Shown: positions 1 to 13,589 of the stretch, piece after piece | How the letters are laid out: each line of letters opens with the position of its first letter | Numbering within the stretch: position 1 is the stretch's first letter | NCBI GenBank assembly: GCA_021324655.1 | Contig: JAJPIP010000035.1 | Span: 150,121 to 214,120, forward strand | Origin: Pseudomonadota bacterium | GTDB taxonomy: Bacteria > Chloroflexota > UBA5177 | Length of the DNA stretch: 64,000 nucleotides | Reading direction: 5' to 3' | Translations under genes and position numbers: made by a program | The notes under the pieces: generated by a model | What the model was told of the DNA's origin: nothing | The model's database searches: none | Seen by the model: only the letters and a program-made list of their open reading frames with translations

Positions 1-1040
1 GCGGTCCCCGTCTCTCCGGCGCGGCCGGTCCGACCAATACGGTGGACATACGTCTCCGATGTGTCCGGCATGTCGTAATTGAAAACGTGCGTGAGACCGG
101 CGATATCGAGACCCCGGGCGGCTATGTCGGTGGCGATCAGCGCCTGTAGCTTGCCGGCTTTGAGGTCGGCCAGCACGCGCTGCCGCTGATTCTGTGAGCG
201 GCGCCCGTGCAGGGCGCCCACCCGATAGCCACGGCGGGTAAGGTCGCGCGTCAGCTTGTCGGCGCGGTAGGTGGTGCGGCGGAATACGAGGGCGAGGTAG
301 GTGGCGGGGTTGTCGAGGTAGGCGCGCAGCGCCTCCAGCTTGTCCACCTCCTCGACGCGCTCAAAGCGCTGCTCGATCTCGTCCACCGTGGCACGCTCCG
401 GATGCACCTCGACGGTTACCGGCTCGCGCAGGTGTCGCTGCGCCAGCTCGCGGACCGGGAGAGGAAGCGTCGCGGAGAACAGCCCGGTCTGTCGGCCGGC
501 AGGAGTCGCCCGGAGGATGCGCTCGATGGCGGGACGGAAGCCGATATCCAGCATCCGATCCGCCTCGTCGAGGATCACGATGCGAACGTCACTCAGTCGA
601 AGGTCGCCGCGCTGCATAAGATCCTCGACCCGCCCGGGCGTGCCGACGACCACCTGGGCACCGGCGCGTAGTCCCCCGATCTGCTTCCCGAACCCGACGC
701 CACCATAGATAGGAAGGACGCGGATGGCGGAGCCTTTGCCGAGGCGACCCAACTCGTCGGCGACCTGGATGCAGAGCTCGCGCGTGGGAACGAGGACCAG
801 TGCCTGCACGCCATGACGGCGCGGGTCAACACGCTCACTAATGGGGATACCGAAGCCCGCGGTCTTGCCGGACCCGGTCTGCGCCTGAGCAAGGACATCC
901 CTGCCCGCACGTAGTGGCGGGATGACGCGCTCCTGAATGAGGGTCGGCTGGCTGTACTGCATCTCTCGAAGTGAACGGGCGAGAGGAGCGCCAACGGATA
1001 ATGTTCCGAAGGTTCCCTCCTTATGGGGCGTCTGTGTCAT
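1..1040 (-). CDS. DEAD-box ATP-dependent RNA helicase (3' end outside window)
   Basis: Unwinds or remodels RNA using ATP in the cytoplasm. Translating the minus strand from ATG at 1040 gives a continuous frame to the window edge. Motifs appear in family order: a Q-motif region (SQPTLIQE), Walker A AQTGSGKT, PTREL, TPGR, the DEAD box in VILDEADRM, SAT in LFSATLP, then the second RecA domain with ATDIAARGLDIAG and finally HRIGRTGRAGETG at the edge. A purine-rich ribosome site (GGGAGGG) sits about 8 nt before the ATG. The C-terminal tail that separates CshA, RhlE and DeaD types is missing, so no gene symbol is given. The leader carries a terminator and a second hairpin (separate entries), which suggests control of its own expression, as known for cold-induced helicases. 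Confidence 0.95.
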   Translation of the reverse strand, partial: MTQTPHKEGTFGTLSVGAPLARSLREMQYSQPTLIQERVIPPLRAGRDVLAQAQTGSGKTAGFGIPISERVDPRRHGVQALVLVPTRELCIQVADELGRLGKGSAIRVLPIYGGVGFGKQIGGLRAGAQVVVGTPGRVEDLMQRGDLRLSDVRIVILDEADRMLDIGFRPAIERILRATPAGRQTGLFSATLPLPVRELAQRHLREPVTVEVHPERATVDEIEQRFERVEEVDKLEALRAYLDNPATYLALVFRRTTYRADKLTRDLTRRGYRVGALHGRRSQNQRQRVLADLKAGKLQALIATDIAARGLDIAGLTHVFNYDMPDTSETYVHRIGRTGRAGETGT

Positions 1041-1044
1041 AATG

Positions 1045-1061
1045 GTGCCCTCCCTGGGCAC
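1045..1061 (-). promoter_or_regulatory. Shine-Dalgarno-sequestering hairpin in helicase leader
   Basis: On the minus strand GTGCCC and GGGCAC form a perfect 6-bp stem around the loop AGGGA. The ribosome site AGGGAGGG lies in the loop and 3' arm, 4 nt before the start codon, so the folded stem would block initiation. It directly abuts the T-run of the upstream terminator hairpin. Confidence 0.5.
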
Positions 1062-1088
1062 AAAAAAAGCCCGCCGCTGTCAGCGGGC
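1062..1088 (-). terminator. Intrinsic terminator or attenuator in the helicase 5' leader
   Basis: Minus strand: GCCCGC pairs with GCGGGC, extended by a U-G and a G-C pair around the tetraloop ACAG, giving an 8-bp GC-rich stem followed at once by seven T. It lies between a TATAAT box at 1117-1122 and the helicase start at 1040, so it would stop transcripts from that promoter before the gene unless antiterminated. It could also simply end read-through from the small gene upstream. Confidence 0.7.
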
Positions 1089-1116
1089 GGACCAACAGTT
1101 TCTAGTATCAGGACAA

Positions 1117-1122
1117 ATTATA
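1117..1122 (-). promoter_or_regulatory. Candidate -10 box of the helicase promoter
   Basis: A perfect TATAAT on the minus strand, rare in this GC-rich sequence. A start about 7 nt downstream would give a leader of roughly 70 nt holding both hairpins. No convincing -35 hexamer lies 17 nt upstream; that position falls inside the long hairpin at 1135-1166. Confidence 0.45.
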
Positions 1123-1134
1123 CAGCATCGGCAT

Positions 1135-1166
1135 GCGTACGGCCTCCCTGGAGGGAGGCCGTACGC
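1135..1166 (-). terminator. Perfect 14-bp hairpin after the small helical gene
   Basis: A 14-nt arm (1135-1148) and its exact reverse complement (1153-1166) enclose a 4-nt loop. Neither strand has a T-run, so it is not a classical intrinsic terminator. A second 7-bp hairpin (CTCACCG/CGGTGAG, 1178-1195) lies between it and the stop of the small gene. Together they may end or stabilise that transcript. Confidence 0.45.
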
Positions 1167-1554: not shown

Positions 1555-1583
1555 TTGTCGTGTTCCGGTCCAGGGCATACACT
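1555..1583 (+). promoter_or_regulatory. Candidate promoter of the TIR-STAND gene
   Basis: TTGTCG (1555-1560) and TACACT (1578-1583) are separated by exactly 17 nt and each match the sigma-70 consensus at 4 of 6 positions. Transcription would begin near 1590, just before the GGAGG at 1611-1615. This makes the upstream TTG at 1555 part of the promoter, not a start codon. Confidence 0.45.
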
Positions 1584-1620
1584 ACATGCACCGCGATGCT
1601 TCGTTGGCGGGGAGGGGATT

Positions 1621-4600
1621 TTGGCGTCGCTTTTTATCAGCTATCGGCGGGACGATACACGGCATGTGGCAGGACGGCTGCGTGACAGCTTGATCAGCCA
1701 CTTTGGAGACGAGCAGGTATTTCGTGATGTCGATAGCTTGCACGGCGGCTATACGTGGGACACCAGTCTGGAGGAGCAAGTCGGGTCCTGCGACATCGTG
1801 CTTGTCCTGATCGGGAGCATGTGGCTCACCGTCACCGGTCGGGACGGGAAGCGGCGGCTGGACGATGCGCGGGATTGGGTGCGCCGGGAGATCGTGGCTG
1901 CTCTGCAGCGCGGCATCCCCATCTTCCCCGTCCTGGTGGATGATGCGCCGCCCCCGCCGAAGGACGACCTCCCGCGCGCGTTGCAGCCGCTGACGCGCTG
2001 GCAGATGTTCAATCTACGTGACGACCGCTGGCATGACGACGTGCACCGCCTCATCCGCGACATTGAGGCGGTGCTCGAGCGGAGCCGGCAAGAATCGGAG
2101 CATCGCACGGAGTCCGCACGGGAGTCTGTGGCATTGGAGACCCCGGTTCCGCGCCAGATTCTACCGGTCGGCGGCTTTCTGGGCTCGATTCCTTCCGACA
2201 AGCTGGTCGGGCGGGAGGATGAGCTCACGCGTGTTCTGCAATCGGTCGATGCCGCCACGCAGGAGGGACGCCTGGTTCTGCTGGCCGGTGAGCCGGGTGC
2301 GGGCAAGACCCGCCTTGCCCAGGAGGCGACCGTCGGTCTGCACAATCGGGGATTTCTGATTGCGGCGGGACGCTGCTACGAGCCGCAACAAGCTGTTCCC
2401 TACTTCCCGTTCATCGACGCGCTCGCCGCGCTGTTTGCCGTTGCCCCGGCCGCACTCCGCCGTGATGCCGCGACACTGTTTCCCTGGCTGGGTCAACTAT
2501 TGCCGGACGAAATTGGCGGGAGGCCGGCCGGTGCGACGGGAGGAACCGACGATCAGCAGCGGCTGTTTCGCGCGGTCACCGGCTTCCTCACGGCGCTGGC
2601 CGCCTCCGTTCCGGTGGCCATCCTGCTCGACGACCTCCACTGGGCCGATCAGGCGAGCCTCGACCTGCTCGGCCATCTCGCCCGTCACACCCGTCACGCG
2701 CCGATCCTAACTCTGGGCACGTATCGGGATGTCGAGGTGCGGCGCCGCCATCCCCTGGAAGGAACCCTCCGCGGCCTTCATCGCGACGGACTGGTGGAGC
2801 GGATCGACGTGCGCCGTCTGGATCAGGCGGGAACCGCTGCCCTCATCGCGGCGAGCTTTGGCGAGGCGGGAATCTCGGACGATTTCGCGTCTCTCGTGCA
2901 CCGTCACACGGAGGGGAACCCCTTTTTCACGCGGGAAGTCCTCCAGACCCTGATCGACCGCGGGGACGTCTTTCAACACGACGGGATCTGGGAGCGTAAA
3001 GAGGTCGCGGAGCTCGAGGTCCCGGAAAGCATCAGGTCTGCGCTCGACGAGCGCGTGGCGCGTCTGGACGACACGACCCAGGAGATCCTCGGCGAGGCCA
3101 GTGTGTTGGGACAGAGCTTCACCTTCGACGATCTCGAGACCATGAGCGGGCGCGGCGAATCGGCGATCGAAGCCGGGCTGGAAGAGGCGATTGAGGCGGG
3201 GTTAGTGCGTGAGTCAGGCCGGGACAGGTACGCCTTCAACCATGCCCTGACTCACCAGGCGCTGTACGCCGAACTCTCGGCACGGAAGCGGCGGCGTTTG
3301 CATCGGGCAGCCGGCGAGGCGCTCGAGCAGCTGCCGGAACGGAAACGAGCGGAACGGACAGTGGAACTGGCCCGTCACTTCCTCGAAGCCGACGAACCGG
3401 AGAAGGCGCTACGCTACAGTCTCGACGCAGGAGAGCGCGCGGAAGCCGTCTTTGCCCACGCCGAGGCCGAGCGCCACTATCGCGAAGCCCTGGCTCTGGC
3501 CCAGGACATCGGCAATGAGCGGGCCGAGGCGGAGACCGGAGAGAAGTTGGGACGGGTGCTGTCCGGCACGGCGCGATACGACGAGGCCATGCGATGCCTG
3601 GACACAGCGGCCAGGACGTATCGCCGGATCGGCGATCTGGCGGCAACCGGACGGGTCACGGCCGCGATCGGACGTTTATACCGCTGGCAGGGCGATCCGG
3701 AAGCGGGGATCGCTCGGGTCCAGTCGATGATCGATGAACTGGGCGCCAGGGCTCCGTCCGATGCACTCGGAGCGCTCTACATTGCCCTTGCCCATCTTTT
3801 CTTCCTATCGGGGAGATACAACGATGTGGTGGCGGTCGCGGAGCGGGCGAGCGAGATCGCGGCGGATGATCCGGCAACACTGGCCGAGGCTCGCGAGCGG
3901 CAAGGAACGGCGTTGATCATGTTGGATCAACCGGGAGAGGGCAAACGGATACTCGAAGAGATCCTCCCGGTCGTCGAGGCCGGTGAGAACCTCCCGCTCC
4001 TGCAGCGGATGATTCAAAACATCGGGTGCGCCGCCGATCTCATGGGCGACGGGACGACTGCCACGCGCTGCTTCCACCGTGCGGTGGAGCTCGCCGAGCA
4101 GGTCGGCAATCCCGATCAGCTCGCCTTCACCCTGGCCAACCTCGGAACGGTTCTTATGAATGGCGGTGAGTGGATCGAGGCGCGCAGCTATATCGACCGC
4201 GCCGCGGAACTCGCCCGCTCGAATATGACCTCAAACGCATCATTCCCCATCAAGCTGCAGGGCTCGCTCGCACTCCGACAGGGGGATTGGGAGAAGGCGC
4301 GTTCGTCGCTCTCCGAGTCCCTGCGTTTGGCGGAGGAGACGGGCAACCGGCAAGCGCACGAGCAGGCATTGGCCGCCCTCAGCCTGCTCGACATCCTCGA
4401 GGGACATCCTCAGGAGGCAGTGGAGAGATTAGCTCCCCTGGCAGATCAGGAGGGCGTCGATGTCCAGATCCTTGAGAGCCTGGCACACGCCCTGTTGGAC
4501 ACGGGAAACCTCGATCAGGCGGCGGAGCTGGCGGAGAGAGCGGCCGAGCGAGCACGCTCCGGGGACGAGCTCTCGTTGCCGGACACACTTATGGTGCAGG

Positions 4601-4908
4601 GGCTGGTCAAGGCACGCCAGGGACGCCTGGGTGAAGCAGAGCTGTTATTTAGGGACGTTCTCGATCTTGCCCGTGCATTACCGTCTCCGTACGTTGAGGC
4701 CTGTGCCCTCTACGAACTCGGCATCATCACCGGCCAGAGCGGCGACCGGGACGGTGCCCGCGAGATGCTCGAGCAATCGCTGGTAATTTTCCGCAAGCTG
4801 GGGGCCCGCAAGGATGTCGAAGAGGCCGAAGAAGCACTGCGTTCCCAAGCGGGAAATGGTCAGACCATTGGCTCCGGGAATGCGAGAGACACTCGCTCGG
4901 CGCACTGA
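1621..4908 (+). CDS. TIR domain - STAND ATPase - TPR protein, about 1,095 aa
   Basis: A large multidomain sensor. An N-terminal TIR domain (about residues 1-140) opens with LFISYRRDD and has CDIVLVLIG; Glu90 in WVRREIV is at the position expected for the NAD-cleaving glutamate. It is followed by an AAA_16/STAND ATPase with Walker A GEPGAGKT near residue 223 and Walker B ILLDDLHW near 334. A long alpha-helical TPR array runs from about residue 560 to the end. TTG at 1621 is chosen because GGAGG lies 5 nt upstream and a promoter covers the more upstream TTG. Known TIR-STAND proteins sense invaders or ligands with the repeats and then make NAD-derived signals or deplete NAD; that role here is inference. 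A cyclic-nucleotide-binding protein follows 89 nt downstream. A regulatory, non-defensive role is possible. Confidence 0.85.
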   Translation: MASLFISYRRDDTRHVAGRLRDSLISHFGDEQVFRDVDSLHGGYTWDTSLEEQVGSCDIVLVLIGSMWLTVTGRDGKRRLDDARDWVRREIVAALQRGIPIFPVLVDDAPPPPKDDLPRALQPLTRWQMFNLRDDRWHDDVHRLIRDIEAVLERSRQESEHRTESARESVALETPVPRQILPVGGFLGSIPSDKLVGREDELTRVLQSVDAATQEGRLVLLAGEPGAGKTRLAQEATVGLHNRGFLIAAGRCYEPQQAVPYFPFIDALAALFAVAPAALRRDAATLFPWLGQLLPDEIGGRPAGATGGTDDQQRLFRAVTGFLTALAASVPVAILLDDLHWADQASLDLLGHLARHTRHAPILTLGTYRDVEVRRRHPLEGTLRGLHRDGLVERIDVRRLDQAGTAALIAASFGEAGISDDFASLVHRHTEGNPFFTREVLQTLIDRGDVFQHDGIWERKEVAELEVPESIRSALDERVARLDDTTQEILGEASVLGQSFTFDDLETMSGRGESAIEAGLEEAIEAGLVRESGRDRYAFNHALTHQALYAELSARKRRRLHRAAGEALEQLPERKRAERTVELARHFLEADEPEKALRYSLDAGERAEAVFAHAEAERHYREALALAQDIGNERAEAETGEKLGRVLSGTARYDEAMRCLDTAARTYRRIGDLAATGRVTAAIGRLYRWQGDPEAGIARVQSMIDELGARAPSDALGALYIALAHLFFLSGRYNDVVAVAERASEIAADDPATLAEARERQGTALIMLDQPGEGKRILEEILPVVEAGENLPLLQRMIQNIGCAADLMGDGTTATRCFHRAVELAEQVGNPDQLAFTLANLGTVLMNGGEWIEARSYIDRAAELARSNMTSNASFPIKLQGSLALRQGDWEKARSSLSESLRLAEETGNRQAHEQALAALSLLDILEGHPQEAVERLAPLADQEGVDVQILESLAHALLDTGNLDQAAELAERAAERARSGDELSLPDTLMVQGLVKARQGRLGEAELLFRDVLDLARALPSPYVEACALYELGIITGQSGDRDGAREMLEQSLVIFRKLGARKDVEEAEEALRSQAGNGQTIGSGNARDTRSAH

Positions 4909-12800: not shown

Positions 12801-13589
12801 ATGACTGAGAACGAGGATCTCGTCCGCGTCCAGGGGCTGACACGGCGCTTCGGCGGCCTGACCGCCGTCGATTCCCTCGATTTCGAGGTGCGCGCCGGCG
12901 AGATCCTCAGCCTCATCGGACCGAATGGAGCCGGCAAGACGACCGTCTTCAATATCATCAGCGGCATCTACCCTCCCACGTCCGGACAGATTCTCTTCAA
13001 GGGCGAGAACATCGCCGGCCTCAAGCCGGATCGTGTGCAACGTAAAGGCATCTCGCGCACGTTCCAGACTCTGCGCCTATTTGCCAATATGTCGGTGCTC
13101 GAGAACGTCCTGGTCGGGTATCACTCGCGCCTCCACTCCAATCTCTTCGGCGATATCGTCAAGCCCCCCTGGGTGGTCAAGGCGGAAAAGGAAGCCGTGG
13201 AGAGATCACGAGAGGTGCTCGGCCGGTTGTCGCCGCGTCTGCTGTCGCGGCAAGAGTTCCGCGCCTCCGACCTCGCGTACGCCGACCGTCGATTGCTGGA
13301 ATTGGCGCGTGCCCTGGTCTCCGATCCGGCTCTCTTGCTCCTCGACGAGCCGACAGCGGGAATGAATCCGACCGAGGCGGCCGAGTTCATGGACCATATC
13401 CGGCACATCCATGCGGACGGCTTCACCATTCTGCTCATCGAGCACAACCTGAACGTGGTCATGGGTGTCTCGCACCGGATCGTGGTACTCGATTACGGAA
13501 CAAAGATCGCCGAAGGCACACCGGATGAGGTGCGCAGCAACGAGCGCGTCATTGAGGCATATCTTGGACGAAAAGCAGCCTCTGCTTGA
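12801..13589 (+). CDS. livG: Branched-chain amino-acid ABC transporter ATPase LivG, 262 aa
   Basis: Cytoplasmic ATPase driving import. ATG at 12801 follows the livM stop by one base. Walker A is GPNGAGKT, the LivG-typical [16 protein letters not shown] gives the Q-loop, Walker B is [13 protein letters not shown], and the switch histidine is in LLIEHNL. The signature region reads [18 protein letters not shown]; the usual LSGGQ is relaxed, as is common in LivG. Its 3' end overlaps the start of livF by 26 nt. Confidence 0.93.

What the first reader, a model, noticed from the sequence alone, without database searches (positions are those of the whole stretch)
1040..1122. Helicase leader with a terminator followed by a ribosome-site hairpin
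Between a TATAAT box and the DEAD-box helicase ATG lie an 8-bp terminator with seven T and, directly after it, a hairpin that hides the Shine-Dalgarno sequence. The two elements touch. This looks like dual control of transcription and translation of an RNA-unfolding enzyme, so feedback by the helicase or a temperature response is plausible.
Basis: partly seen in the sequence, partly recalled or inferred. Interest (0 to 1): 0.58.

Follow-up and report, generated by a model that had tools for sequence, protein, structure and literature searches.

The report
Double-brake leader of an RNA helicase
A gene for an RNA-unwinding enzyme begins with a short RNA stretch that carries a transcription stop signal and, right behind it, a hairpin at the ribosome-binding site; the pair is kept in related bacteria, so the cell probably holds this enzyme under two brakes that changes in RNA folding could release.

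Summary
On the minus strand, a TATAAT box (1122-1117), an 8-bp terminator with T7 (1088-1062) and a 6-bp hairpin at the Shine-Dalgarno (SD, 1061-1045) precede the DEAD-box helicase ATG (1040). Within 374 kb of this genome, 34 terminators were found and only this one has the SD hairpin and start codon behind it. The layout recurs before the orthologous helicase in all 5 genomes of the family (5 genera, different upstream neighbours, one divergent); a covariance model finds one strong copy per genome there among 400 phylum genomes. A paralogous helicase in 4 of the 5 has an unrelated leader of the same layout with a larger SD-switch hairpin. In another family a third leader, a three-way junction holding a terminator, precedes the helicase (81 of 120 genomes; 21 of 21 checked loci). 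No Rfam match. Premature termination plus restricted translation is well supported as anatomy; neither was measured. A melting thermometer is not supported (hairpin closed to 65 C in silico). The release trigger is open: helicase shortage or cold, or a ribosome on an overlapping upstream ORF.

The parts
1117..1122 (-). -10 box TATAAT; a TAnAnT box lies 24-30 nt before the terminator stem in all five orthologous leaders
   Evidence: extended TGn before the box in 4 of 5 (not in this genome); no -35 found by the scan
1089..1116 (-). 28-nt spacer: presumed transcription start and 5' end of the leader; poorly conserved
   Evidence: start site inferred, not mapped
1069..1088 (-). terminator stem-loop, 8 pairs, loop ACAG
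   Evidence: conserved in 5 of 5 orthologues
1062..1068 (-). U-tract, T7
1045..1061 (-). SD hairpin GTGCCC-AGGGA-GGGCAC
1049..1055 (-). Shine-Dalgarno AGGGAGG, 8 nt before ATG; 5 of 7 bases in the loop
1021..1095 (-). possible overlapping uORF (TTG start) in the frame shared by all five leaders, running through terminator and SD hairpin
   Evidence: hypothetical, weakest of the five because it starts with TTG
1..1040 (-). DEAD-box RNA helicase gene, N-terminal 346 aa in the window (whole frame 430 aa in the genome)
   Evidence: PF00270 157.5 bits, PF00271 102.5 bits; nearest NCBIfam model CshA, below its cut-off
1135..1166 (.). perfect 15-bp inverted repeat, likely 3' end of the upstream gene, outside the leader

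Best explanation
The stretch is the 5' leader of the helicase mRNA and acts as a two-step brake. Transcription starts a few bases after TATAAT (inferred), and RNA polymerase meets an intrinsic terminator about 20 nt later, so a share of transcripts should end there. Transcripts that read through carry the SD in a small hairpin directly behind the U-tract, which limits ribosome access. Helicase output therefore depends on how often both hairpins are opened. Shown: the elements, their order, their conservation and their specificity to helicase leaders. Inferred: that termination and reduced translation occur. Not known: the trigger. Likely candidates are low helicase activity or cold, altering the folding of the nascent RNA, and a ribosome on an overlapping uORF that would open both hairpins.
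For: Orthologues in 5 of 5 family genomes carry the same order of elements. Model R1 gives 57.9-67.5 bits in exactly these five and at most 35 bits elsewhere among 400 phylum genomes; 23 of the 25 weaker loci returned were inspected and none precedes a helicase. Paired changes in 4 of 12 consensus pairs. Upstream neighbours differ, and in G004 the neighbour is divergent, so the terminator is not its 3' end. 1 of 34 terminators in 374 kb has the layout. The paralogue has an unrelated leader of the same layout in 4 genomes. A third leader class with a terminator precedes helicases in another family.
Against: No transcript data. Only five genomes, so covariation is thin, and the SD hairpin is weak in G004. 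Most of the SD is in the loop in this genome. No antiterminator partner was found in the short spacer. A same-class orthologue (G006, 56% identical) shows no terminator in its leader, and G005 lacks one before its type II orthologue. Only 9 of 65 phylum helicase leaders had a terminator within 260 nt of the match, with no control rate measured.
Confidence: 0.62

Rival explanations
1. Ribosome-coupled attenuation: a ribosome on a near-leaderless uORF crosses the terminator and the SD hairpin, preventing termination and handing over to the helicase start. Translation capacity, not helicase or temperature, is sensed.
For: All five type I leaders have an open frame through both hairpins in one common frame relative to the stem (ATG in 4, TTG in G000); spacer shuffles reach 4 of 5 with P 0.00165; in G003 and G004 it ends TTGA on the helicase TTG. 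In type II an ATG lies 7-8 nt after the -10 in 4 of 4, as in leaderless mRNAs (the comparison with leaderless mRNAs is recalled).
Against: Found after looking (post hoc), five genomes, no clear SD before the uORFs, no ATG in the window's own genome; type II peptides not alike and of 13 to 32 codons.
Confidence: 0.25
2. The terminator is simply the 3' end of the upstream gene and the helicase has an ordinary promoter.
For: In this genome the upstream gene (1213-1446) runs the same way.
Against: That gene is followed by its own 15-bp palindrome; the TATAAT lies upstream of the terminator and T7 touches the SD hairpin, leaving no promoter room; in G004 the neighbour is divergent; conserved with different neighbours in 5 of 5.
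Confidence: 0.08
3. RNA thermometer: the SD hairpin melts with heat.
For: It sits on the SD of a helicase gene.
Against: SD pairing in G000 and G001 is unchanged from 10 to 65 C in silico; only the G002 and G004 leaders open with warming.
Confidence: 0.05
4. Chance juxtaposition in GC-rich DNA.
For: Terminator patterns alone are at chance level in 4 kb.
Against: 5 of 5 orthologues, one strong copy per genome, 1 of 34 terminators in 374 kb.
Confidence: 0.02

Closest known systems
CspA-family antitermination and cold-shock leader attenuation (E. coli; C. crescentus cspA)
   Same: Cold-response RNA chaperone genes tied to intrinsic terminators; C. crescentus cspA is attenuated at optimal temperature and translated better in the cold (passage of PMC5472812); Csp effects on readthrough (passages of PMC8307031).
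   Different: The gene is a helicase; no cold-shock-domain protein was found in this genome; no antiterminator known here.
Autoregulated bacterial DEAD-box helicases: C. crescentus rhlE, Synechocystis crhR
   Same: Helicase mRNA under post-transcriptional and possibly self control (PMC5472812 passages; PMC3485376 abstract).
   Different: rhlE has a 186-nt 5' UTR; the passages read mention no leader terminator; no shared sequence tested.
B. subtilis dual attenuators (vmlR; trp leader with TRAP)
   Same: Transcription attenuation and translation attenuation in one leader (vmlR: title and abstract start in the search listing, PMC9226507; TRAP recalled).
   Different: Those have a known inducer and a leader peptide or binding protein; here the trigger is unknown and the spacer is only 28 nt.
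RNA thermometers
   Same: Hairpin over the SD.
   Different: Predicted not to melt in this genome; preceded by a terminator.

Membership tests
Intrinsic-terminator transcription attenuator | Terminator between promoter and gene | tested here: met
   Sequence level only: -10 at 1122-1117, terminator 1088-1062, ATG 1040; conserved in 5 of 5
Intrinsic-terminator transcription attenuator | Regulated choice between termination and readthrough | not testable with these tools
   Needs term-seq or reporters
Intrinsic-terminator transcription attenuator | Competing antiterminator helix | tested here: inconclusive
   No competing helix in the minimum-energy folds of four leaders; G004 fold mixed; no systematic search
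SD-sequestering translational control | SD paired in the mRNA | tested here: inconclusive
   Hairpin in 5 of 5 but SD mostly in its loop in G000, G003, G001; weak in G004
RNA thermometer | SD helix opens in a physiological range | tested here: not met
   G000 unchanged 10-65 C in silico
Known Rfam families (riboswitches, T-boxes, r-protein leaders) | Match at gathering score | tested here: not met
   Only 2 tRNAs in the window; none in 8 loci with leaders of both types or in 11 phylum loci
Leader-peptide (ribosome-coupled) attenuator | Conserved translated uORF overlapping the terminator | tested here: inconclusive
   Common open frame in 5 of 5, ATG in 4; shuffle P 0.00165, post hoc

The most novel reading that the evidence does not exclude
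At least three unrelated leader RNAs in one bacterial phylum place an intrinsic terminator in front of DEAD-box helicase genes, in two of them followed at once by an SD switch. This would be a recurring way to sense the cell's RNA-unfolding or translating capacity on the nascent helicase mRNA itself, with a (near-)leaderless uORF as the device that opens both hairpins in types I and II.
Probability: 0.27. Interest if true: 0.8.

Novelty: new variant of a known kind. Interest (0 to 1): 0.55.

Why it matters
How bacteria control their RNA helicases is not well characterised (so says the abstract of PMC3485376). Here are three compact leader RNAs, without a match in Rfam at gathering score in the loci scanned, each tied to a DEAD-box helicase in its lineage, with a defined terminator to test. 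If readthrough depends on helicase level, temperature or translation, they would show how a cell measures its own RNA-unfolding capacity.

Tried and rejected
Upstream-gene terminator, thermometer and chance were weighed and set aside (see rivals). Rfam gave nothing for the leaders. The genome-contig scan returned 80 more distant helicases and no obvious member of the window's family; its output says that near records may be left out. Weak R1 and R2 hits elsewhere were read as chance: 25 loci inspected (23 of R1, 2 of R2), L152 and L153 not. G005 and G006 leaders were folded as possible SD hairpins without a terminator; the folds are not better than shuffles (22 of 200 as good for G006, 45 of 200 for G005), so I claim nothing from them. 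The f52 family leaders have terminators farther upstream but did not align well. A T-box before leuS in G004 was considered and is not supported by Rfam. Models R1 and R3 were run on 13 and 11 further loci: one weak R1 hit (19 bits, L069), no R3 hit. I did not measure a control rate for leader terminators across the phylum, so no enrichment is claimed from 9 of 65. Literature searches that were answered; none listed a paper describing such a helicase leader.

Full report
What is there. The helicase gene lies on the minus strand with ATG at 1040 and runs off the window start; in the genome the open frame is 430 aa. Pfam gives DEAD and Helicase_C; the nearest NCBIfam model is CshA, below its cut-off. 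Upstream on the same strand come, in order, TATAAT, a 28-nt spacer, an 8-bp terminator stem, T7, a 6-bp hairpin with the SD, and the ATG. The terminator's U-tract touches the hairpin. Five of the seven SD bases lie in the hairpin loop, so the SD is constrained rather than fully hidden.

Is it more than chance. The simple terminator scan in 4 kb is at chance level. A strict scan for terminator, adjacent hairpin with SD, start codon and an ORF of at least 60 codons over the window plus 310,120 bases of the same genome (374,120 in all, both strands) found 34 terminators and one with the layout: this one. The same scan finds it in three of the four orthologous regions tested; in G004 the helicase hairpin is too weak for the scan, which instead flags a similar layout before leuS there (leuS named by eye from the translation).

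Conservation. The class holds seven genomes. In the five of the same family, each its own genus, the orthologous helicase (68-71% identical to the window's) is preceded by terminator, U-tract, SD element and start. Model R1 from these five finds one strong copy in each (57.9-67.5 bits); among 400 phylum genomes 46 have a match at E up to 0.01, and the other 41 have at most 35 bits. Of the 25 weaker R1 loci returned, 23 were inspected and none precedes a helicase. RNAalifold on the five gives 12 pairs, 4 with a change on both sides; in G004 two inner pairs of the SD hairpin change from C-G to U-A together, but its outer pairs are lost. All five sequences were used to build R1, so their scores are high by construction; what the search adds is the copy number and the absence elsewhere. 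Neighbouring genes upstream differ, and in G004 the neighbour is divergent.

A second leader with the same layout. A paralogous helicase in four of the five genomes (G004 shows no close copy) has a different terminator followed by a longer hairpin, then the SD GAAAGGAC and the start. Model R2 finds one strong copy in each of these four (88-108 bits) and otherwise 31 bits at most in 400 genomes. The arm GGGTGTYCC can pair with GGRAYGCCC downstream (9 pairs, some G-U, in 4 of 4, read by eye from the sequences) or with GGACACCC over the SD (30 of 32 cells). These helices exclude each other. The predicted equilibrium favours the SD-paired form in G002, G003 and G001 and is mixed in G000; warming to 60 C changes it little. 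The SD-free helix is completed first during transcription, so slow refolding could leave the SD open; that is inference.

A third leader in another family. Of 65 phylum helicase leaders looked at (260 nt, a few shorter), 9 have a terminator-like hairpin; no control rate was measured. Several belong to one family, f7, where the leader aligns well and folds into a three-way junction with the terminator as one arm. Model R3 matches 21 of 400 phylum genomes, all f7; in 21 of 21 loci a DEAD-box helicase frame follows. Over these 21, 92.2% of 940 cells are paired and 18 of 45 pairs have changes on both sides, which none of 500 shuffles reached; the alignment was fitted to the model, which favours it. 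In a draw of 120 f7 genomes 81 match. Six of the 21 sequences built the model. Two f7 or near relatives (L213, L221) and G310 differ in the 3' part and were left out of the model.

Mechanism. The best reading is two brakes in series. Against a thermometer: the G000 hairpin keeps the same pairs from 10 to 65 C. The spacer is too short for a classical antiterminator, and the predicted folds show none in four leaders. Two triggers remain. One is RNA unfolding itself: cold or scarce helicase. The genome has no cold-shock-domain protein at the cut-off used (genome about 96% complete). The other is the ribosome: all five type I leaders have an open frame through both hairpins in one common frame, starting with ATG in four and TTG in G000, ending TTGA on the helicase start in G003 and G004; shuffled spacers reach at least four ATG frames in common in 0.165% of trials, but the test was made after seeing the pattern. 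In type II an ATG stands 7-8 nt after the -10 in 4 of 4, the spacing of leaderless mRNAs (recalled).

Known context. C. crescentus rhlE has a 186-nt 5' UTR and may regulate itself; cspA of that species is attenuated at optimal temperature (passages of PMC5472812). CrhR of Synechocystis autoregulates (abstract of PMC3485376). B. subtilis Csp proteins alter readthrough at terminators (passages of PMC8307031). vmlR combines transcription and translation attenuation (title and abstract start in the listing). PMC6239172 was read in passages only and reports no helicase attenuator there. Nine answered searches listed no paper on helicase leaders of this kind; the library lacks most subscription journals.

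Origin. From genome sizes and relatives I think the phylum is Chloroflexota and f7 Anaerolineales; that is inference.

Noticed in passing
L189, L196, L197, L199, L207, L123 and L223-L243 (family f7): Conserved three-way-junction leader RNA with an embedded terminator before a DEAD-box helicase; 81 of 120 f7 genomes, no Rfam match in the loci scanned; strong covariation.
   Followed up: partly
L011, L012, L013, L014 (type II leaders): Second helicase paralogue with terminator and a two-state SD hairpin; ATG 7-8 nt after the -10 in all four.
   Followed up: partly
L184 (G040), minus strand, about 60-100 nt before the helicase match: Terminator of 14 pairs followed directly by a possible hairpin CCCAC/GTGGG holding GGGAGG, before a helicase in another family: possible independent case, though the predicted fold prefers another pairing of the SD.
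   Followed up: partly
L179 (G004) 12990-13073: Between a tRNA gene and a leucyl-tRNA synthetase-like gene: a terminator directly followed by an SD hairpin, the same layout at a non-helicase gene.
   Followed up: partly
window 1135-1166: Perfect 15-bp inverted repeat with a 2-nt loop behind a short ORF (1213-1446, minus) without Pfam or NCBIfam match.
   Followed up: no
G000 whole genome: No cold-shock domain (PF00313) match at E up to 0.001, although the control search rings in 9 of 14 known genomes.
   Followed up: no
L025, L031, L040: Bacillales helicase genes share a terminator-like hairpin GCTCGGCAA..GACCGGGC (varied) upstream, with similar sequence kept downstream of it.
   Followed up: no
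window 1555-4908: Large plus-strand ORF; its start resembles a TIR domain followed by an ATPase (recalled, not scanned).
   Followed up: no
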